DNA of 64,000 nucleotides from Ferruginibacter lapsinanis (lineage in GTDB: Bacteria > Bacteroidota > Bacteroidia > Chitinophagales > Chitinophagaceae). A model generated the notes under the pieces. The model saw nothing but the letters and a program-made list of their open reading frames with translations. It was not told the DNA's origin and made no database searches. The stretch's first letter is position 1; each line of letters starts with the position of its first letter. This document shows positions 136-9,598 of the stretch, one piece after another. The position numbers and the translations under genes are program-made. The stretch lies in assembly GCF_020783315.1 (NCBI RefSeq), contig NZ_CP086063.1, forward strand, positions 806,001 to 870,000, given 5' to 3'.

Positions 136-1584
136 TCACTCTCCACTAATCTCATCCCTCCTCTTCTTAAATTTCCTCGGATCCGTTCCATCCATCTGTA
201 CAATAGCCGGATAAAATCTCCCCAACACATCCACCAAAGTATTTTGACAGGCCATCACTTCATTAATATCCTTATAAGCAAAAGGCGCTTCATCCAAACC
301 ACCACCGATCAGTTTTACACCATGTGCTTTCAATTCATTCTTCAATGCTTCATGAGTAATATTAGCCAGTGCTTTGCTTCTGCTCATTTTTCTTCCTGCT
401 CCATGAGATGCAGAATTCAAAGAAGTTGGTTCACCTTTACCTTTTACAATAAAGCCCGGTGCAGTCATAGAGCCGGGAATAATTCCCAATACATCCTTGC
501 CTGCCGGTGTAGCACCTTTCCGATGTACGATCACTTCTTTGCCTTCATACATTTCTTTCCATGCAAAGTTGTGATGGTTCTCTACTCTTGCAATTGGTTT
601 CTCTCCAATCGCTTTTGCAATTTTTGCATGTATGGTATGATGACAAGCACTTGCATAGTCTCCCGCCAAATTCATAGCCAGCCAGTATTCCATACCTTCT
701 TCAGTATCCAGATCCAGCCATGCTAAATGTTTAGCTTCTTTTGGCAACACAGTTTTTTGCATCGCAATTTGTGTGTAGTAGTTGGCAATATTTGCGCCCA
801 ACCCTCTGCTACCACTATGGCTCAACAAGCCAACATAATTACCAACTGCCAATCCCATCGGATTGTCAGCATCAGTAATTTCCACTTTCCCAAACTCTAC
901 AAAATGGTTACCACTACCGGAAGAGCCTAACTGCTTCAACGCTTTATGTTGTAATGATTGCAAGAAATTTATTTCTGAAAATTCTTTTCTGTCCAGTACT
1001 TCATGTTCAGTTCTTTCAGCAAATTCTCTGCCTGCACCAAACAATGTATTGGCTACTAACTCTCTTTGAAAATAGGCTTCTTTCTTTTTCAAAGCATCCG
1101 GTTCAATCGCAAAAAAGCTCAAACACATTCTGCAACCAATGTCTACACCCACTGCATACGGAATGATGGCATTATCTGTTGCCAACACACCACCAATCGG
1201 TAAGCCATAGCCCTGGTGGGCATCAGGCATTAACGCACCGGCCACTGCCACTGGCAATTTCGCTGCGGTTTGCATTTGCAATAAAGCACCTTCTTCAATA
1301 TGTTTGGCACCGAATACATTGTATGCCACACTATTTTCATTCAACGGAATTTCTGTAGTTTCTTCTATTACAGGTTCAATTAATTTTTCTGCAATTTTAG
1401 ATAACACTTCATCCGCCAGATAATTTTCCGGAGTAGCTAATACATCTTTTAATATTTGCAATGCTTCTACTTCTGTATGATGTTTAAAGTGTGTGCACAT
1501 GGCATGCATGGCCACACTTACCACCGGCCCTTCTTCGTAGCCGATAGCCCGGATCTGTTTACCGGTTAATTTTAATTTGCTCAT
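136..1584 (-). CDS. rtcB: RNA-splicing ligase RtcB
   Basis: RtcB joins RNA ends carrying a 2',3'-cyclic phosphate or 3'-phosphate to 5'-OH ends, using GTP and Mn2+; it seals tRNA exons in archaea and metazoa and repairs broken RNA in bacteria. The 482-residue product carries the family motifs in order: GVDIGCRM near 146-153 with the metal-binding Asp and Cys, GSGNHFVE near 223, SHSGSRG near 255, ENHHNF near 335, HRKGATP near 354, IIPGSM near 368 and SASHGAGR near 391. The His in the last motif (about 394) corresponds to the guanylylated nucleophile. All expected catalytic residues are present, so the enzyme should be active. It is last in a minus-strand module with tRNA-like genes, an AAA ATPase and a slipin. 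No RtcA cyclase, archease or RtcR activator is visible nearby. Confidence 0.96.
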   Translation of the reverse strand: MSKLKLTGKQIRAIGYEEGPVVSVAMHAMCTHFKHHTEVEALQILKDVLATPENYLADEVLSKIAEKLIEPVIEETTEIPLNENSVAYNVFGAKHIEEGALLQMQTAAKLPVAVAGALMPDAHQGYGLPIGGVLATDNAIIPYAVGVDIGCRMCLSFFAIEPDALKKKEAYFQRELVANTLFGAGREFAERTEHEVLDRKEFSEINFLQSLQHKALKQLGSSGSGNHFVEFGKVEITDADNPMGLAVGNYVGLLSHSGSRGLGANIANYYTQIAMQKTVLPKEAKHLAWLDLDTEEGMEYWLAMNLAGDYASACHHTIHAKIAKAIGEKPIARVENHHNFAWKEMYEGKEVIVHRKGATPAGKDVLGIIPGSMTAPGFIVKGKGEPTSLNSASHGAGRKMSRSKALANITHEALKNELKAHGVKLIGGGLDEAPFAYKDINEVMACQNTLVDVLGRFYPAIVQMDGTDPRKFKKRRDEISGE

Positions 1585-2212: not shown

Positions 2213-3316
2213 TTATTTCTGCGGCACAAAGATCTGCTTCAACTGATCGATCAAAACGCCATTACCATTTACGCTGATGTTGCTGATCTTGTCGGCAATT
2301 TTTTCTACGTATTCCATCTCTTTCAATTTCCACAACATGGCATTGTCTTCCATCAATTTTGCAGTGTTCAACAAGCTACGGGTGCTGGCAGTTTCTTCTC
2401 TACGCATAATGCTGTTGGCCTGTGCGTTCTTTTCTGCTACCAACACTTTGTTCATGATGTCTTTTACATCGCCTGGCAAAATGATATCACGGATACCGAA
2501 ACCATTTACGCTAACACCCAATTCGTCAGCAGCAGTTTTTACTGCTTCCAAAATGAATGGAACGATGGAATCTTTTTTCTCCAACAATTCATCAAAAGCC
2601 AAACCTCCCACATACTCACGCAATGCCAACTGGAAAGCCATATACAACTGACGTTCGTAATCTTTGTTTTGCAACACAGCTTTTTCTACATCTGCTACTT
2701 TGTATTGGGCATAACCGTTGATACGCAATGCAGCTTTATCTTTGGTCAATATCTCCTGACCATTGATCTCTATTTGCTGCATACGGATATCGATCACACT
2801 CATTACGATAGAGATGTTATTCTTCCACCAGAAGTAAATACCTGCTGGCAAAATTTGTACATACTTTCCATCAATATACACCACGCCTTTTTCAAAGTTT
2901 GCCACATTGAACACACGTACGTATGGTGCTACCAAAGGGTTCTGCAACACAGCACGACTGATGTTTTCAGTGATCTCGATCTTGCCGATATCTGCTTTAA
3001 TGAAATCGAATTGATTGACTTCGCTCTTCCAATAAGCATAACGACCGGCAGTCAACACTTGCTTCAACAAACCGTTTTCATAACGCAACGCAATTTCATT
3101 GTCATTTACTTCAATCACCTGCAAAGCATTTGCCAATGCAGCATCTTGCAATAAAATGTTTAATTCTATTGGTGCAATGAAGGGTTTAGTTACATCATAT
3201 ATCATTGCGGTTTCTCCAAACCACAACCAATAGTTTCCTTCAGTCAACATTTTTTTGTACACGCTATTTTTAAATACCAAGGCTACCTGGTAGGCGTTGA
3301 TCATGATTTTTTTCAT
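2213..3316 (-). CDS. Slipin / band-7 (SPFH) family protein
   Basis: This 367-residue protein resembles the SPFH/band-7 (stomatin, prohibitin) family, which forms oligomeric rings and scaffolds. The recognisable part is the middle to C-terminal half: GVVYIDGKYVQILPAGIYFW near 143-162, ISIVMSVIDIRMQQIEINGQ near 167-186, the QLALREYVGG segment near 228, and the alpha-helical QANSIMRREETASTRSLLN tail near 300. No N-terminal transmembrane helix or signal peptide is visible, unlike classical stomatins, so it is probably cytosolic or peripheral. Slipin genes recur beside rtcB in other bacteria, which I recall from comparative genomics of RNA-repair operons. Here it lies between the permuted tRNA-like block and rtcB. 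Its role in RNA repair is unknown. Confidence 0.88.
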   Translation of the reverse strand: MKKIMINAYQVALVFKNSVYKKMLTEGNYWLWFGETAMIYDVTKPFIAPIELNILLQDAALANALQVIEVNDNEIALRYENGLLKQVLTAGRYAYWKSEVNQFDFIKADIGKIEITENISRAVLQNPLVAPYVRVFNVANFEKGVVYIDGKYVQILPAGIYFWWKNNISIVMSVIDIRMQQIEINGQEILTKDKAALRINGYAQYKVADVEKAVLQNKDYERQLYMAFQLALREYVGGLAFDELLEKKDSIVPFILEAVKTAADELGVSVNGFGIRDIILPGDVKDIMNKVLVAEKNAQANSIMRREETASTRSLLNTAKLMEDNAMLWKLKEMEYVEKIADKISNISVNGNGVLIDQLKQIFVPQK

Positions 3317-3602
3317 TTGTTCTATTTTAAAATTTTTTAATTTTTTTAAATAAAGCTTGGCTTGTTTGCCATCCGTTAATTACGGAAGCTGATTTCAAGG
3401 GTGTTCATTTATCCGTTTCGGCAATACCTCATTTACTACACGTGTGTAATAAAATATTATTGTTGAAATGAAAAAACATTCACACTGTTTACATCCGCTT
3501 GCTGGTTCTTTTCAGATTTTTGTATTACAACTTTAAAAAAACTGCAATGCAAAAGGCAAACAAGCTTTGCTTTACTTCTTTCCCTATTTTTTTAGAATAG
3601 TG
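3317..3602. other. Long leader of the slipin gene
   Basis: This 286-nt stretch has no convincing ORF. It holds an 18-nt motif (3431-3448) resembling one ahead of the AAA gene, and an 11-bp inverted repeat (3360-3370 with 3555-3565) that could pair across the leader. A small GCAAA/TTTGC hairpin lies at the upstream end. AAACAAGCTTT at 3558-3568 recurs as a direct repeat near 3876-3886 on the far side of the permuted RNA block. Confidence 0.5.
3431..3448 (-). promoter_or_regulatory. Shared 18-nt motif upstream of slipin
   Basis: ATTTACTACACGTGTGTA (plus strand) matches 5041-5058 upstream of the AAA gene at 14 of 18 positions. Each copy lies between an RNA block and the following protein gene, 115 and 54 nt before the start codons. 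It is a candidate binding site for a common regulator. Confidence 0.4.
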
Positions 3603-3607
3603 TTTTT

Positions 3608-3691
3608 CTACATTACCAATTGTAGCGTTCTTCCATTGAACTATCCATCGCTGTCGATGAAGCAGGAATCGAACCTGCACTGATTGTCTAC
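3608..3691 (-). tRNA. Permuted tRNA-like gene, unit I (Pro TGG or Thr GGT anticodon)
   Basis: On the minus strand the 3' part comes first: T-arm GCAGG-TTCGATT-CCTGC (3678-3662), then acceptor strand TTCATCG (3661-3655). After a 4-nt linker (3654-3651) follows the 5' part: acceptor strand CGATGGA (3650-3644), TA, D-arm GTTC-AATGGAA-GAAC (3641-3627), G26, and anticodon arm CTACA-ATTGGTAA-TGTAG (3625-3608). The two acceptor strands form seven pairs, one of them T-G. The 5' sequence ahead of this T-arm (GCGGTGA) does not pair with TTCATCG, so an ordinary gene order is excluded. The anticodon loop has 8 nt; it reads TGG, or GGT if an A is bulged. CCA is not encoded. A mature molecule would require joining in or near the variable region. 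Confidence 0.6.
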
Positions 3692-3761
3692 TGTTCTAAC
3701 CGCTGAACTATCACCGCTTAAGGTGAAAGGGATTCGAACCCTTGACCCGTAGGTTGTGGAG
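3688..3761 (-). tRNA. Permuted tRNA-like gene, unit J
   Basis: Minus-strand order is: anticodon-stem half CCTAC (3753-3749), 5-nt variable loop GGGTC, T-arm AAGGG-TTCGAAT-CCCTT (3743-3727), acceptor strand TCACCTT (3726-3720), AA linker, acceptor strand GCGGTGA (3717-3711), TA, D-arm GTTC-AGCGGTTA-GAAC (3708-3693), A26 and GTAGA. TCACC pairs with GGTGA across the linker, and CTAC pairs with GTAG, with an A-C mismatch at 31-39 like that in the Phe gene at 5085. The result is a cloverleaf open at the anticodon loop, as in permuted tRNA genes of red and green algae. GTAG at 3688-3691 is shared with unit I. The sequence preceding CCTAC (CTCCACAA, 3761-3754) could supply a CCA (Trp) anticodon. Confidence 0.55.
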
Positions 3762-3831
3762 GACACCGCTCTATTGCCGCAACAGCATACAGATGGTTAC
3801 TACGTCTGCACTATGGTGTTATTAAAAACAC
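3762..3831 (-). tRNA. Degenerate third permuted tRNA-like unit, K
   Basis: On the minus strand GTGCAGA (3811-3805) and TCTGTAT (3793-3787) can form seven pairs, two of them G-T, across an 11-nt linker. The second strand runs straight into a D-arm-like GCT...AGC structure with a GCGGC-containing loop (3786-3768). Upstream is a GTGTT/AACAC stem (3831-3816) with a 6-nt loop lacking the TTC motif where a T-arm would be expected. The layout follows units J and I, but positions 8-9 are missing and the T-arm is not canonical. It may be a decayed unit. Confidence 0.3.
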
Positions 3832-3835
3832 ACAT

Positions 3836-3905
3836 CCGGTTTGCTGATAACAGGCAAATGCCCTTCTTGTCGTAAAACAAGCTTTTGTGTTGATTGTCAT
3901 CAACA
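3836..3905 (-). other. Hairpin-rich spacer after the AAA gene
   Basis: On the minus strand this holds three stems: GTTGAT/ATCAAC with a 4-nt loop, CTTGT/ACAAG with a 6-nt loop, and TTTGC/GCAAA with a 9-nt loop. The last two in sequence resemble a D-arm and an anticodon arm, but no T-arm follows and the D-loop lacks GG. It could be the remains of a fourth tRNA-like unit or simply structured 3' UTR. Confidence 0.3.
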
Positions 3906-3910
3906 ATATT

Positions 3911-4987
3911 TTAATTCATTGCGACTTCATTTCTTCTAAAACCCATTACTTCCACTCTTTCTGGTTTATATTCCTTTTCATTTGGATTCGCAATTTCTGC
4001 TATGGTCATCGGCTTTGTAATGACATTACTAAACCCAAAATGATCACTCAACTTTTGCGCCTTATCAATTCCTAATTTTCCGAATTCATATTTTGCAATC
4101 AATCTTCCTTTACGCATCAATGCACTATCTACAAGTGTTAGCGAATTGTTGAATGTGCAGATCAACTGTACATTTAAAAAATCTGCCAATAGTCCATCCG
4201 AAATATTCAACAGGTTTGATACGGATGACCCGTTACTTAGTTTTCTATCCATGATGATGTTTTCAGCATCTTCAATTATCAACACTGTATTCGGGTTATC
4301 TATCAATAACTCAACAAACTCAGGATTCATAAGGTTATCAGCTACCGTTGGTGATAAGAATAACACACGCTTTTTTATTTTACCTATCAAATGACGCAGG
4401 TAAGTTGTTTTGCCTGTACCGGGTAATCCGTGTAGCAATACAATCCCTTTATCTTTTTTAGCATTGAGTCTTTTACGTATCACTTCGTCTGTTTCTTTAA
4501 AATCATCCTCATAAAAAAGATCCAGATCCAGTTTCGTTCTTTTGATCTCCATTGCCTTCAGATCGAGCCCTCTGCCATTACGTACAATAAGGTTTATCTC
4601 CAATGGCTGACGTCTTTGTTTTTCTTTAAATTGATTTACCAGGTCTGTCAGCTCCTGTACAAAAGCATCTTGCTTGCCATCGTGCAATATTTCGCAATAG
4701 TCATCATCAAATTCCAGTAAGCAATTATTTTTTAAAATGATCACTGTTTTATCGAACTGATATCTTTTCTTTTCTCTTTTATACCATCTGTACTGATGCA
4801 CATGAGAGATAAGTTCTCTGTTTTTTTCTTTAAATACGTCGAATGCTTTTTCCCCATCAATGTTGTTTACAAAACTTAAACTCGGCAGTTCGTTGAAACA
4901 ATACAGGTATAATATTTTCGTATCCAAAAAACGATCATCAAACACATTGTTTGCATTGATAACTTTCTGGTTAAATAAATTGTCCAT
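3911..4987 (-). CDS. AAA ATPase of the RtcB/tRNA module
   Basis: This 358-residue protein has an unrecognised N-terminal half followed by one AAA domain: Walker A GLPGTGKTTYL near 187-197, Walker B TVLIIEDAE near 235, sensor-1-like ICTFNNS near 277, and RKGRLIAKYEF near 292, which probably holds the arginine finger. The spacing and the GRLIAKYEF segment recall Bcs1-like AAA proteins, but there is no transmembrane helix. AAA proteins remodel protein or RNA-protein complexes; the substrate is not evident here. It is flanked on both sides by tRNA-like genes on the same strand, and an 18-nt motif shared with the slipin leader lies 54 nt before its start. I infer a role with RtcB and the slipin in handling these RNAs. 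Confidence 0.8.
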   Translation of the reverse strand: MDNLFNQKVINANNVFDDRFLDTKILYLYCFNELPSLSFVNNIDGEKAFDVFKEKNRELISHVHQYRWYKREKKRYQFDKTVIILKNNCLLEFDDDYCEILHDGKQDAFVQELTDLVNQFKEKQRRQPLEINLIVRNGRGLDLKAMEIKRTKLDLDLFYEDDFKETDEVIRKRLNAKKDKGIVLLHGLPGTGKTTYLRHLIGKIKKRVLFLSPTVADNLMNPEFVELLIDNPNTVLIIEDAENIIMDRKLSNGSSVSNLLNISDGLLADFLNVQLICTFNNSLTLVDSALMRKGRLIAKYEFGKLGIDKAQKLSDHFGFSNVITKPMTIAEIANPNEKEYKPERVEVMGFRRNEVAMN

Positions 4988-5058: not shown

Positions 5059-5084
5059 CATATTTTTAATTTTTAGTTTTTTTG

Positions 5085-5158
5085 TGGTGCTCCAAGGAAT
5101 TGAACCTCGATCTCCGGGATTTCACTCCGGCGCATATATGCCATTCTGCCAAAGCACC
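5085..5158 (-). tRNA. tRNA-Phe (GAA)
   Basis: The cloverleaf has a 7-bp acceptor (GGTGCTT with GAGCACC, last pair T-G), a 3-bp D-stem, anticodon arm CCGGA-GTGAAAT-CCCGG, variable loop AGATC and T-arm CGAGG-TTCAATT-CCTTG, with discriminator A. The anticodon reads GAA after T33. The innermost anticodon-stem pair is an A-C mismatch. CCA is not encoded. It is the last gene of the array and lies close to the AAA gene on the same strand. Confidence 0.8.
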
Positions 5159-5170
5159 TTTTTGTTCCAG

Positions 5171-5242
5171 AGGATGAAGAAAGAGTCGAACTTTCAACAC
5201 TTGCCTTAACAGGGCAACGCTCTACCGTTGAGCTATTCATCC
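5171..5242 (-). tRNA. tRNA-Asn (GTT)
   Basis: All stems are complete: acceptor GGATGAA/TTCATCC, D-arm GCTC-AACGGTA-GAGC, anticodon arm TTGCC-CTGTTAA-GGCAA, T-arm GAAAG-TTCGACT-CTTTC. The anticodon is GTT. The discriminator reads T, where G is usual for Asn. CCA is not encoded. Confidence 0.9.
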
Positions 5243-5247
5243 TTATG

Positions 5248-5321
5248 TTGGCTCGGTGAGACTTGAACTCACAACTCCCGGATTAAAAGTCCGGTGCATC
5301 TACCAATTGAGCTACGAACCA
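5248..5321 (-). tRNA. tRNA-Lys (TTT) with a bulged D-stem
   Basis: Acceptor TGGTTCG/CGAGCCA, anticodon arm CCGGA-CTTTTAA-TCCGG, variable loop GAGTT, T-arm GTGAG-TTCAAGT-CTCAC and discriminator A are all present. The D-stem reads GCTC on one side and GATGC on the other. This is one nucleotide more than the standard GAGC and leaves a bulged T. The extra base is unusual for a functional tRNA. Confidence 0.8.
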
Positions 5322-5326
5322 GTCTG

Positions 5327-5399
5327 TGATGACTAAAGGACTTGAACCTTTAACCACTATCGTATCAGGATAGCACTCTGCCAATTGAGTTAAGTCATC
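5327..5399 (-). tRNA. tRNA-Ile (GAT)
   Basis: Acceptor GATGACT/AGTCATC, D-arm ACTC-AATTGGCA-GAGT, anticodon arm CTATC-CTGATAC-GATAG and T-arm AAAGG-TTCAAGT-CCTTT pair fully, with discriminator A. The anticodon is GAT. CCA is not encoded. Confidence 0.9.
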
Positions 5400-5403
5400 T
5401 CAG

Positions 5404-5475
5404 TAGCGGCTACAAGAATCGAACTTGTATTGATTGGTTTATGAGACCAAGGTGTTACCATTACACTAAACCGCA
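5404..5475 (-). tRNA. tRNA-Met-like (CAT)
   Basis: The acceptor TGCGGTT/AGCCGCT has a T-T mismatch at the first pair and one T-G wobble. The D-arm GTG-TAATGGTAA-CAC, anticodon arm TTGGT-CTCATAA-ACCAA and T-arm ACAAG-TTCGATT-CTTGT are intact. A mismatch at 1-72 is typical of bacterial initiator tRNA, but the anticodon stem lacks the three G-C pairs of initiators. CAT could mean elongator Met, or Ile if the first anticodon base is lysidine-modified. Confidence 0.8.
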
Positions 5476-5479
5476 ATAT

Positions 5480-5573
5480 GTGCGACTTTCAGATTTGAAC
5501 TGAAAACATTCCTCTTATGTTTACCTCTCAGAAAGGGAGGAAGAAGAACGTGTTGCCGTTACACCAAGCCGCA
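5480..5573 (-). tRNA. tRNA-like gene with an extended anticodon arm
   Basis: The acceptor TGCGGCT/AGTCGCA, D-arm GTG-TAACGGCAA-CAC, variable loop TGTT and T-arm TTCAG-TTCAAAT-CTGAA are normal for a class I tRNA. Between G26 and the variable loop there are 40 nt instead of 17. They fold as an 8-bp helix (TTCTTCTT with AAGAGGAA, one T-G), then a 4-bp helix (CCTC/GAGG) with a 9-nt loop and a 7-nt bulge (TAAACAT) on the 3' side. This looks like a tRNA with about 23 nt inserted in the anticodon loop, that is, an intron-like insertion. A Glu (TTC) reading with a long variable arm is possible but leaves 8 nt unpaired. Confidence 0.6.
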
Positions 5574-5585
5574 TTTTCTTTTTTG

Positions 5586-5658
5586 TATAGTAGGCAGGAT
5601 TCGAACCTGCAGCCTCTCCGGTCCAGGCGGAGTATCCAACCAATTGGAATGCTACTAT
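5586..5658 (-). tRNA. tRNA-Pro-like (TGG) with unusual positions 8 and 33
   Basis: The acceptor ATAGTAG/CTACTAT, anticodon arm CTCCG-CCTGGAC-CGGAG and T-arm GCAGG-TTCGAAT-CCTGC pair perfectly, with discriminator A. Base 8 is C instead of the near-universal T, base 33 is C instead of T, and the outer D-stem pair is T-T. These departures suggest a tRNA not used in ordinary translation, or one in decay. It is the first gene of the array. Confidence 0.7.
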
Positions 5659-6376: not shown

Positions 6377-9300
6377 TTATTTTATTTTAAAACTTTCTAT
6401 CTCAATTGTACCACTTTGATTATCTAAAGAAATTATATCTGTGTCTATTGATTGCTCGGCGGTGCCAAAATTATTTATCTTAATGATTCTTATATAAGAT
6501 GAATACCATGATCCATAATAAGAATTAGATGATAAACTGATACGATATTTTCCTTTTGGTGCATCTTTCACCTGAAATTCACTCAGCATATAATCCGTTG
6601 CAGCACTGTGCAGCCTTGCACCAATTCTGTTTATAGTATTAGAATTTTTAACATCATAACCACGTGGTGTATCAAACGTTAAATCAGATAAATTGCTTGT
6701 AGATGATTCCACTATGATACGAATATCTGCAGGAATTGACTTTATAATTTCTTTGGGAATATAACTGATATCAATTGGGCCTTTATGCAATGCAATCATC
6801 ATATTCATTTCAGCCAACATGATATCTTTTAATTTCAATGTTTGTGTATCCCAATTATACCCGTATTTTATTATTCCGTTATACAATATCCGTATAGCTG
6901 TATCTTCCCTATCACTCTGATAATAAGCCCAGGCCGCATCTCTTACAAAACGTAAATTATTTGGATAGTCTTCCGACAAATTTTGATAGATCTCTATAGC
7001 CTTATCGTACTGCTTCATATGCTCGTAAATAAAAGCTATGGATGTTTGGGAAGTTACATCTCCATAACCTGTTTCCGCAGCATGTTGTATCATTTCATCT
7101 GTGTAGGCTGTTAATCCATGTTCATAAAAATGTAGAGCCATATCCAGATAAAAAGTTGCATTATTCTTGTATGCTTTTTCAAGATCCAGGTAAGTCTGAT
7201 ATTTATTTTTGACAGAACTATTTTTTATTATAACCATATACCCAACATCATTTTGGTTTTTTAGTTTTGTGAAACGGCTATAATTTCGGTTAAAAAAGTT
7301 GCCCGATTTTGTGGTCACAAGAATTACACCGTTGGCTCCTCTCGATCCATAAATGGCCGTAGATGCAGCATCTTTTAAAACATCAATTCGTTCTATATCA
7401 ATCACAGAAATATCACTCAGACCAGATTCAGAGGGTATTCCATCAATAACATATAACGGTGCATTACTTTGTGTGATAGAACTACCGCCACGAATTTTTA
7501 TTTCCAGTTCCGCCCCGGGGGCCCCTTCCGTTGTGGTAACCTGTAATCCTGATACTCTTCCAGTTAAAGCTTCGCCAACAGAACTAAAAGGAACATCTTT
7601 TAACTGATTATATGTGATCGAAGAAACAGATCCCGTTAAAGCAGATTTGCTGGTAGTTCCATACCCTATTACCACTACTTCATCCATTGCTTTGGTATCA
7701 TTATTTACTGGTGTTGTTACCGTATTTAAATTTTGTTGAGTTGCCGATTTTGCTTTTTCAGTTTCCACAATTTTATCCTGCTCTATTTTAGCATAACTTT
7801 TCCCAACAGATTCAATATCGATTTTATCTGTATGAGCTCCCCACAAATCAATCCTTTGATTATATTCTTTAACTACCAGTTTCAGCATTTCTGCATTATC
7901 TGTTTTTTTCATTTGCTCATATCGCCTTCTATAATCCGTTTGCACATATCCTCTATCCAAACACGATTGCAACAGATCAGCCGGTGGTGTTATGTTATAT
8001 TTCACATAGTCATCTATCTTTTCTAAAACAATATAAGATGTTTGCCAGGTCACCATTTTATTATCAATACCAAAAGCCAATGTATTGCACCAGTATCTAC
8101 CGGCTAAAATATATTCGAAGTTTATCAGTGCTTTGGCTTTATCAAAATCTTCACCATAACAATTGGTCTGTAGATCAAATTGCTGCGTATACAATACTCT
8201 ATCTCCGAAACCATATTTTAATATGATCTTCCGGGAATAGTTTTTTAATGTGCCTACCAGCAGCATTGCAGGAGAAATAGCTTGTGGCAATCTCATATCA
8301 GCCTGATTACCCGATTCATCTTCTACAGCTATCAGACCAATATTTATTTTTGACAGATCTTCAATTGCTCTGTCATCGTAACTGCTGTTGTATAGATAAT
8401 AGTTTTTATAATTCAGGATTGGATTGTAATAAGCATAAGGATCATAATAGTCGTCTTCGTAATAACTATAGTACCTGTAATTATAATAATATCCGGTGGT
8501 GATAAAAGCTACCGGAGTTTTGATAACCAATGGTTTCTTCTTCCCCCAGGTATGTCTTCCATCTGTAAAAACCAATATCAGATCATCCTTTGTATCAAAG
8601 TTCAGAATACCGAATTGCGTAGCTCCTTTATATTGTATCTGATCTATCAACTGCTCCCAATCATTGCCCTCAATTTCCTCTTTAGTAAAAATTTTTTCTC
8701 CATACAATTGTTGATTAAACGGCACAATTGTTAACTGATCTGGTTTGTACCTCGTTATTACTTTTTTAAGGAATATGGTAAACTCTTTCTTATTCTTTTC
8801 AATCATAGAAGCTGAACAATCCCAATACACTCTCAATTTTTTTATATCAATAGTATAATTTTCAGCCAGCTTATTTTCAGTTTTAAGAAAGAAGGCTCCT
8901 GTTGCAGATTCCATACAGGCACTGATCTCTGTACATTGCTTTGGCAATAAGAATGCGATCGAACCTTTGCCCTTACAATCGTTGAAAGAAGTTGTCAGCG
9001 TATACTTATCAGACAAATTCACAAATTTTTTATCCTTCAATAATCCATATTCGCTAATTGGTGCATACGCATGTTTAGTAACATTTACATTAACGGATAA
9101 ATGGCCAATGCTATCATTTGACAATAATCCCAGGTCGAATTTATACCCATCTCCTGCACATCTTAAAAGTTCTTCTATTTTTATTTTTACTTTACGACTG
9201 CCTTTTGCCGGTACAGGATAAATATTAAGTGTATAATAATTTTGTCCGGTCATCCGCAGCAATGCAGGATCCATTCTTTTTCCTACAATATTAGAATACG

Positions 9301-9598
9301 CTTGCCTGGCCTTCCAGCTTTCTTCAATACTTCCTTCTCTGTAAGCATCTCCTAGCATCAACTGAAAGCCCGTTACGGCCTGTCCAGGAGCCAAATGAAA
9401 ATTGTACAATGCTTCGGCTTCTTTGTTCCTGTCATTGTAAAATTCAAGTTCTATCCATGTTGTAGCAAACATTCCTTTTGTGGTAATATCTACAGCACAT
9501 TCTTTAATGATCATAGATTGATCAAACAATCTTCCTTGTTGCGCCTGTGTAGAAATGCATAAAAAAGCAGCTATGAAAGCAAGCAATAATCTTTTCAT
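6377..9598 (-). CDS. Secreted VIT-VWA-TonB plug-TPR fusion protein
   Basis: This 1073-residue protein starts with a signal peptide (MKRLLLAFIAAFLCISTQAQ). A VIT (vault/inter-alpha-trypsin) region spans about 20-150. A von Willebrand A-like domain begins near 255 with the MIDAS motif DCSAS and a later FTDGRH. A tyrosine-rich stretch lies near 370-412. Residues about 637-765 match the SusC/RagA-type TonB plug, including DEVVVIGYGT, GRVSGLQV, IRGGSS, PLYVIDGIP and GSRGANGVILVTTKSG. The C-terminus has TPR-like helices near 790-930. No beta-barrel follows the plug, so this is not a transporter by itself. I infer an envelope protein that docks with outer-membrane partners. A 6-bp hairpin (9600-9616) sits in the leader. 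Confidence 0.85.
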   Translation of the reverse strand: MKRLLLAFIAAFLCISTQAQQGRLFDQSMIIKECAVDITTKGMFATTWIELEFYNDRNKEAEALYNFHLAPGQAVTGFQLMLGDAYREGSIEESWKARQAYSNIVGKRMDPALLRMTGQNYYTLNIYPVPAKGSRKVKIKIEELLRCAGDGYKFDLGLLSNDSIGHLSVNVNVTKHAYAPISEYGLLKDKKFVNLSDKYTLTTSFNDCKGKGSIAFLLPKQCTEISACMESATGAFFLKTENKLAENYTIDIKKLRVYWDCSASMIEKNKKEFTIFLKKVITRYKPDQLTIVPFNQQLYGEKIFTKEEIEGNDWEQLIDQIQYKGATQFGILNFDTKDDLILVFTDGRHTWGKKKPLVIKTPVAFITTGYYYNYRYYSYYEDDYYDPYAYYNPILNYKNYYLYNSSYDDRAIEDLSKINIGLIAVEDESGNQADMRLPQAISPAMLLVGTLKNYSRKIILKYGFGDRVLYTQQFDLQTNCYGEDFDKAKALINFEYILAGRYWCNTLAFGIDNKMVTWQTSYIVLEKIDDYVKYNITPPADLLQSCLDRGYVQTDYRRRYEQMKKTDNAEMLKLVVKEYNQRIDLWGAHTDKIDIESVGKSYAKIEQDKIVETEKAKSATQQNLNTVTTPVNNDTKAMDEVVVIGYGTTSKSALTGSVSSITYNQLKDVPFSSVGEALTGRVSGLQVTTTEGAPGAELEIKIRGGSSITQSNAPLYVIDGIPSESGLSDISVIDIERIDVLKDAASTAIYGSRGANGVILVTTKSGNFFNRNYSRFTKLKNQNDVGYMVIIKNSSVKNKYQTYLDLEKAYKNNATFYLDMALHFYEHGLTAYTDEMIQHAAETGYGDVTSQTSIAFIYEHMKQYDKAIEIYQNLSEDYPNNLRFVRDAAWAYYQSDREDTAIRILYNGIIKYGYNWDTQTLKLKDIMLAEMNMMIALHKGPIDISYIPKEIIKSIPADIRIIVESSTSNLSDLTFDTPRGYDVKNSNTINRIGARLHSAATDYMLSEFQVKDAPKGKYRISLSSNSYYGSWYSSYIRIIKINNFGTAEQSIDTDIISLDNQSGTIEIESFKIK

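What the first reader, a model, noticed from the sequence alone, without database searches (positions are those of the whole stretch)
3688..3761. Second permuted tRNA-like unit in tandem
Unit J repeats the layout: T-arm, TCACC, short linker, GGTGA, D-arm. In addition CTAC and GTAG close an anticodon stem, so the molecule is a cloverleaf open only at the anticodon loop. Two such units side by side make chance or a single deletion unlikely. GTAG is shared with unit I, so the units overlap and could be alternative products.
Basis: partly seen in the sequence, partly recalled or inferred. Interest (0 to 1): 0.88.

Follow-up and report, generated by a model that had tools for sequence, protein, structure and literature searches.

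The report
Tandem tRNA-mimic RNA beside repair genes
A non-coding RNA gene in a Bacteroidota genome contains two copies of a tRNA shape with its parts in rotated order, beside RNA-repair genes; the same layout, with matched base changes, recurs in most related loci examined, so it is real, and it is probably a relative of bacterial Y RNAs that uses a different partner protein.

Summary
On the minus strand, unit J (3688-3752) reads anticodon stem, variable loop, T-arm, acceptor closed by a short linker, D-arm, anticodon stem. Unit I (3608-3683) follows and carries its own anticodon hairpin. Homologous leaders of an SPFH/Band-7 gene in Bacteroidota have this module in 75 of 80 loci. With acceptor pairing not required, the cross-linker acceptor still pairs at 4.78 of 5 positions, against 2.64 for shuffled partners. 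The modules match the tRNA-like core of Rfam YrlA (bacterial Y RNA) but not its Ro60-binding stem, and the genome has no Ro60/TROVE gene. In the same family, Y RNAs beside TROVE genes carry the same module. I read this as a YrlA-type tRNA-mimic RNA whose partner is an SPFH protein in an RtcB repair locus. Such an RNA was, as I recall, announced by Burroughs & Aravind 2016, which I could not open. The anticodon-bearing second module, possibly nuclease bait, is the less expected part.

The parts
3688..3752 (-). Unit J: YrlA-like tRNA mimic (anticodon stem CUAC/GUAG, V-loop, T-arm, capped acceptor, D-arm); chain enters and leaves at the anticodon end
   Evidence: (YrlA model positions 23-88, 30.2 bits)
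3608..3683 (-). Unit I: complete circularly permuted tRNA mimic (V-loop, T-arm, 7-bp capped acceptor UUCAUCG-ACAG-CGAUGGA, D-arm, own anticodon hairpin CUACA-AUUGGUAA-UGUAG)
   Evidence: (YrlA positions 30-81, 29.6 bits)
3786..3811 (-). Conserved 5' hairpin GUGCAG...CUGUAUG upstream of unit J (closest relatives only)
3351..3568 (-). Putative 3' domain of the RNA, closed by AAAGCUUG (3568-3561) with CAAGCUUU (3359-3352); moderate support in close relatives, weak elsewhere
3351..3880 (-). Approximate extent of the whole structured RNA (ends not determined)
   Evidence: inference
2213..3316 (-). SPFH/Band-7 protein gene directly downstream; the RNA keeps company with this gene in relatives
136..1584 (-). 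RtcB RNA ligase gene
3911..4987 (-). AAA ATPase gene directly upstream
5084..5658 (-). Array of tRNA genes upstream of the AAA gene (Phe, Asn, Lys, Ile, Met and one further tRNA seen only by Rfam)

Best explanation
This is a non-coding RNA of the bacterial Y-RNA (YrlA) kind whose protein partner is not Ro60 but the SPFH/Band-7 protein encoded just downstream, inside an RNA-repair locus (RtcB, AAA ATPase, spare tRNAs). Shown: tandem tRNA mimics, conserved by covariation; linkage to the SPFH gene; a module shared with Y RNAs beside Ro60 genes. Inferred: the RNA is transcribed and is bound by the SPFH protein, which probably forms a ring or cage as other SPFH proteins do. Because their acceptors are capped the mimics should not be charged; they offer tRNA-like surfaces to tRNA-binding enzymes (a nuclease such as PNPase as in the Ro60/YrlA particle, tRNA-modifying enzymes, or RtcB), so that the RNA tethers RNA decay or repair to the SPFH assembly under RNA damage.
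For: Covariation with acceptor pairing not required: 91 units in 64 of 80 loci; 4.78 of 5 inner pairs in register, 1.7-2.6 when slid, 2.64 (max 2.97) with shuffled partners. A3, 58 modules: 95.7% of cells paired, covariation 0.775 against 0.248 shuffled and 0.08-0.19 slid. YrlA core matched twice. Same module within about 2 kb of TROVE in 10 of 12 TROVE genomes of the family; in those regions 17 of 19 YrlA matches cover the full model 1-114. Module within about 1 kb upstream of SPFH in 24 of 28 SPFH-bearing genomes of 117. RtcB in the flanks of 45 of 80 SPFH loci, all on the same strand; RlaP, PrfH and RNase H-like genes beside relatives. Literature, passages only: YrlA tRNA-like domain and Rsr/PNPase tethering (PMC8394870; PMC7790460).
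Against: No transcript or binding data. The whole RNA seems longer (about 530 nt) than described Y RNAs, and its 5' and 3' domains are conserved only in close relatives. SPFH and TROVE are not mutually exclusive (both in 4 of 117 genomes, 2.9 expected from the counts), so partner replacement is not proven. 14 of 80 loci show neither RtcB, nor AAA, nor 3 tRNAs in the fetched flank.
Confidence: 0.6

Rival explanations
1. Bait or sensor for tRNA-cutting toxins. Unit I and its relatives carry a full anticodon arm with canonical loop rules, so an anticodon nuclease cuts the uncharged mimic instead of (or as a signal for) cellular tRNAs, and RtcB reseals it.
For: 34 seven-nt loops: C32 in 27, U33 in 27, positions 36-37 are UA in 18 and GG in 11, as in real tRNAs (37 rows from 87 loci, about four of which look like chance). 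34 of 34 such modules rewritten in tRNA order are called tRNA by ARAGORN, often Lys UUU, Met CAU, His GUG, Ile GAU, Asn GUU. 39 of 80 loci have at least 3 same-strand tRNA genes upstream, rich in Phe, Arg, Lys, Leu, Gln, His, Tyr and poor in Ala, Gly, Val, Thr. RtcB nearby. Competitive inhibition of an anticodon nuclease by YrlA was proposed as a possibility in PMC7790460 (passage).
Against: 36 of 75 loci with modules have only one J-type module without an anticodon loop. No nuclease was identified at the locus. Salmonella YrlA was not cut (PMC7790460, passage). The window's own loop has 8 nt and no clear single anticodon.
Confidence: 0.3
2. Cis-acting leader of the SPFH mRNA: the tRNA mimics regulate or process the transcript of the gene behind them.
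For: The RNA ends about 35 nt before the SPFH start and lies on its strand; a module is upstream of SPFH in 75 of 80 loci.
Against: The distance from module to start varies widely (about -280 to -780 nt); the same module occurs in Y RNAs beside TROVE genes, where the known relatives act in trans.
Confidence: 0.15
3. Permuted tRNA genes that are processed into working tRNAs, as in some algae and archaea.
For: I-type modules hold a complete tRNA in rotated order; RtcB ligase is encoded nearby.
Against: Linkers between acceptor strands are 0-13 nt, 0 or 1 nt in 19 of 91, leaving little room for mature ends; most modules (74 of 109) are J-type without anticodon loop; the genome already has a normal tRNA set.
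Confidence: 0.03
4. Ordinary Ro60-binding Y RNA.
For: Both units match the YrlA core; shared neighbour RtcB.
Against: No TROVE gene in the complete genome, TROVE in only 4 of 28 SPFH-bearing family genomes; the terminal YrlA stem is not matched (model positions 23-88 and 30-81 only).
Confidence: 0.04
5. Decayed tRNA cluster or chance.
For: T-arm followed by the next D-arm is what neighbouring tRNA genes give; R1 scores such junctions up to about 40 bits.
Against: In 110 real tRNA junctions the inner acceptor pairing is mostly 1-3 of 5, against 5 of 5 in 75 of 91 units; conservation across Bacteroidota orders.
Confidence: 0.01

Closest known systems
YrlA / bacterial Y RNA (Rfam RF02553)
   Same: T-arm, capped acceptor, D-arm, 4-bp anticodon-stem equivalent in the same order; RtcB in the neighbourhood
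   Different: no terminal Ro60-binding stem match, no Ro60 gene in the genome, modules in tandem, second module with a full anticodon arm, longer RNA, SPFH partner gene
SPFH/Band-7-associated tRNA-like RNA of Burroughs & Aravind 2016 (NAR 44:8525; the citation seen in reference lists; content recalled from the abstract only)
   Same: as recalled: a tRNA-like molecule cognate to SPFH/Band-7 modules in RNA-repair systems; probably this very kind
   Different: I could not check whether tandem modules, anticodon loops or the long RNA were described
Permuted tRNA genes (algae, archaea; recalled)
   Same: rotated order of tRNA parts
   Different: capped acceptor with 0-13 nt linker; J-type modules lack an anticodon loop; linked to SPFH, no sign of mature tRNA ends
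tmRNA, including the permuted form (RF00023, RF04321)
   Same: tRNA-like T-arm and acceptor
   Different: complete D-arm and anticodon arm here; no tmRNA match in the window; the genome's tmRNA is elsewhere
Vault particle (MVP with SPFH domain; vault RNA)
   Same: SPFH preceded by repeated beta units; an RNA partner suspected
   Different: the beta units match the corresponding part of erlin and prohibitin as well as MVP repeats, all at low Z; no evidence for a closed cage

Membership tests
YrlA (bacterial Y RNA) | tRNA-like module: T-arm, capped acceptor, D-arm in this order | tested here: met
   (positions 23-88 and 30-81 of 114)
YrlA (bacterial Y RNA) | Rfam gathering score (69 bits) | tested here: not met
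   30.2 and 29.6 bits; no YrlA at gathering in 9 SPFH loci. TROVE-linked family Y RNAs also stay below it (31-54 bits), so the threshold is uninformative here
YrlA (bacterial Y RNA) | basal stem of 5' and 3' ends that binds Ro60/Rsr | tested here: not met
   no match to model positions 1-22 or 89-114, while 17 of 19 YrlA matches in TROVE-linked regions are full length
YrlA (bacterial Y RNA) | Ro60/TROVE protein in the genome | tested here: not met
   0 matches in the complete genome
YrlA (bacterial Y RNA) | length 90-150 nt (PMC8394870) | tested here: inconclusive
   consensus structure spans about 530 nt, ends not mapped
YrlA (bacterial Y RNA) | binds PNPase; modified by DusA and TruB | not testable with these tools
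   needs biochemistry
SPFH/Band-7-linked tRNA-like RNA (Burroughs & Aravind 2016, recalled) | tRNA-like RNA next to an SPFH gene in an RNA-repair locus | tested here: met
   definition recalled, not read
Functional permuted tRNA | linker that can yield separate mature 5' and 3' ends | tested here: inconclusive
   0-1 nt in 19 of 91 units; 2 nt in unit J, 4 nt in unit I
tmRNA | covariance match to tmRNA | tested here: not met
   none at gathering, only an 8.6-bit fragment; the genome's tmRNA is at 1951095-1951467
Major vault protein (for the SPFH partner) | MVP repeats before the SPFH domain | tested here: inconclusive
   whole model aligns to MVP chains over about residues 3-322 (Z 10.7-11.8, rmsd 7-8), but the N-terminal part alone only Z 2-4, tied with erlin and prohibitin

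The most novel reading that the evidence does not exclude
A bacterial RNA that displays one uncharged, Y-RNA-type tRNA mimic and one complete circularly permuted tRNA with a chosen anticodon on an SPFH (possibly vault-like) protein assembly, serving as a repairable bait or damage sensor for anticodon nucleases; the anticodon is exchanged between species in step with the local toxins.
Probability: 0.25. Interest if true: 0.85.

Novelty: new variant of a known kind. Interest (0 to 1): 0.62.

Why it matters
It links three things: Y RNA tRNA mimicry, SPFH assemblies, and RtcB RNA repair with spare tRNA arrays. It shows that the tRNA-mimic module of Y RNAs exists apart from Ro60. The I-type modules, with their natural variety of anticodons, give a direct way to test whether such RNAs are substrates or decoys of tRNA-cutting enzymes, an open question for YrlA itself. 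Rfam at its curated threshold sees only a single weak tRNA here.

Tried and rejected
Sharing of GTAG between units: rejected. Mutual exclusion of SPFH and TROVE: not seen (4 genomes with both, 2.9 expected). Phage carriage: one distant SPFH (37%) in viral contigs, not followed. Vault reading of the SPFH protein: the N-terminal part alone gave no Foldseek match at E <= 0.001 and only Z 2-4 rows; left open. PADLOC: only two weak AAA matches. 3' closing stem tested beyond the alignment it was seen in: the two motifs co-occur in 26 of 79 loci and the inner pairs average 2.1 of 3 in 20 independent loci, with a best-choice bias, so only moderate support.

Rows and choices to tell: A3 used 2 window modules and 56 of the 85 modules with linkers up to 7 nt, hand-picked. 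R1 matches those rows by construction; the unbiased test is. '75 of 80' = 64 by pattern (which requires pairing) plus 11 more by R1 at 42.8 bits or more; L110 (24.3) and L125 (21.3) are weak, L107 and L117 show nothing in the 300 rows listed (59 weaker rows were not shown), L148 has almost no upstream sequence. I-type is defined by a 5-of-5 anticodon hairpin, so its presence there is by definition. The 'within 1 kb' and 'within 2 kb' counts were made by eye from the listed coordinates.

Literature: searches; papers seen only as passages: PMC10272220, PMC7790460, PMC8394870, PMC7824862, PMC6514570, PMC7159879, PMC13100048. Chen 2014, Burroughs & Aravind 2016, Wang 2018 and an annual review on Ro60 were not held.

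Full report
What is there. On the minus strand of 3608-3752 two tRNA-like units follow each other. Unit J: CUAC - GGGUC - T-arm - UCACCUU - AA - GCGGUGA - UA - D-arm - A - GUAG. Unit I: V-loop - T-arm - UUCAUCG - ACAG - CGAUGGA - UA - D-arm - G - CUACA-AUUGGUAA-UGUAG. ARAGORN reports neither. Rfam reports a weak tRNA that straddles them (3654-3716, 33.4 bits) and, below threshold, two matches to YrlA, the bacterial Y RNA, at 3751-3686 (30.2 bits) and 3679-3627 (29.6 bits).

Surroundings. Upstream on the same strand lie a tRNA array (5084-5658) and an AAA ATPase gene, downstream an SPFH/Band-7 gene and an RtcB gene. The genome (3.46 Mb, one contig, 100% complete) has no TROVE/Ro60 gene and its tmRNA lies elsewhere.

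Relatives. The AAA protein occurs in 41 of 117 genomes of the family. Of 35 regions around it, 9 hold an SPFH match; 8 of these 9 have modules directly upstream of SPFH, even where the AAA gene lies kilobases away, and the ninth (L031) has a broken SPFH gene. Three regions (L037, L038, L040) hold Y-RNA-like modules without an SPFH match. A scan with the SPFH alignment gave 522 relatives, of which the best 80 were kept, from several Bacteroidota orders. A module lies upstream of SPFH in 75 of these 80 (64 by pattern; 11 more by R1). In whole genomes of the family, 28 of 117 have the SPFH protein and 24 of these 28 have an R1 match within about 1 kb upstream of it. The four misses are G018, G084, G071 (SPFH gene broken) and G114 (module seen by pattern).

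With T-arm and D-arm required but acceptor pairing not, 91 units were found in 64 of 80 loci. Inner acceptor pairing is 4.78 of 5 in register, 1.7-2.6 when slid, and 2.64 on average (maximum 2.97 in 1000 rounds) with partners shuffled between loci; 110 junctions of real neighbouring tRNA genes mostly give 1-3. On 58 aligned modules all seven acceptor pairs, three of five T-stem pairs and all four D-stem pairs change on both sides, with 95.7% of cells paired. The anticodon stem of J-type modules, at exactly 5 nt from the T-arm, has 4 of 4 pairs in 63 of 74, mean 3.61 against 2.70 shuffled, and other spacings are at chance. Order in the 75 loci with modules (of 85 examined): J 36, JI 27, I 6, JJ 5, IJI 1.

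The second module. After its D-arm the I-type module runs into a 5-bp anticodon stem with a 7-nt loop in most cases. Over 34 such loops, C32 and U33 occur in 27 each and positions 36-37 follow the tRNA rule (UA 18, GG 11); about four of the 37 rows are probably chance. Rewritten in ordinary tRNA order all 34 modules tested are called tRNA by ARAGORN. So the I-type is a complete tRNA in rotated order, opened between anticodon stem and variable loop, with its acceptor capped.

The whole RNA. In 14 leaders (the window and 13 close relatives) RNAalifold gives a consensus of 84 pairs, 53 of them with at least one sequence changed on both sides, from a 5' hairpin to a 3' domain ending about 35 nt before the SPFH start. 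The 5' hairpin motif is found in 26 of 79 further loci, almost all among the closest relatives (L070-L095, L104), and the 3' closing stem is only moderately supported. Transcript ends are not known.

Relation to Y RNA. TROVE occurs in 12 of 117 family genomes; R1 has a match within about 2 kb of it in 10 of the 12. In the 12 TROVE regions 17 of 19 YrlA matches cover the whole model. The window RNA matches only the core. The tRNA-mimic module is therefore shared between Ro60-linked and SPFH-linked RNAs, while the Ro60-binding stem is not. Known facts on YrlA (length 90-150 nt; D, T and acceptor arms; Rsr bound by the basal stem, PNPase by the mimic) are from passages of PMC8394870 and PMC7790460.

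The partner. The SPFH protein was modelled (pLDDT 81). Its SPFH domain matches stomatin (Z about 16) and the whole chain aligns with major vault protein over about residues 3-322 (Z 10.7-11.8, rmsd 7-8). The N-terminal beta units alone match erlin, prohibitin and MVP units equally weakly, so a vault-like assembly is a thought, not a result.

Function. RtcB lies in the flanks of 45 of 80 loci, always on the SPFH strand. RlaP (RNA-repair nucleotidyltransferase family), PrfH and an RNase H-like protein are found beside relatives (10 hand-picked neighbours scanned). 39 of 80 loci have three or more same-strand tRNA genes upstream. In the window, the array's Asn tRNA, among others, differs widely from another copy with the same anticodon elsewhere in the genome. 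In Anabaena, rtcB, a slipin gene, an AAA gene and a tRNA operon are under one repressor relieved by translational stress (PMC10272220, passages). This places the RNA in RNA damage response. I favour a tether or scaffold role like that of YrlA, with a bait or sensor role for anticodon nucleases as the main rival.

Novelty. As I recall, the abstract of Burroughs & Aravind 2016 names SPFH/Band-7 modules with a novel tRNA-like molecule as cognate RNA; I saw only its citation. The kind is thus probably in print. I did not find the tandem arrangement, the anticodon-bearing permuted module or the long RNA in searches, which cover only openly licensed papers and of which I read only listings and passages.

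Noticed in passing
window 5084-5475 (minus): The tRNA array near the locus holds tRNAs (Asn, Lys) whose bodies differ strongly from another genomic copy with the same anticodon; possibly stress-time replacement tRNAs.
   Followed up: partly
window 5586-5658 (minus): A tRNA found by Rfam (50.2 bits) but not by ARAGORN, with mismatches in its stems and an anticodon loop that lacks U33; similar ones stand beside Y-RNA-like modules in L008 and L009.
   Followed up: no
window 5488-5504 (minus): A T-arm directly before the tRNA-Met gene without a recognised tRNA around it; perhaps a broken or odd tRNA gene.
   Followed up: no
L124 5293-5540 and L143 5189-5424: Aquimarina loci with three tRNA-mimic modules in a row upstream of the SPFH gene.
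   Followed up: no
L186-L196: Ro60/TROVE-linked Y RNAs in the same bacterial family, one to four copies beside one TROVE gene, some amid tRNA genes.
   Followed up: partly
L071 5072-5551, L138 4070-4705: An RNase H-like gene (PF04308) upstream of the RNA in relatives; its tail is also visible before the RNA in L032 and the gene in L031.
   Followed up: partly
window 6377-9598 (minus): One protein joining a VIT domain, a TonB plug domain and TPR repeats, an unusual combination.
   Followed up: no
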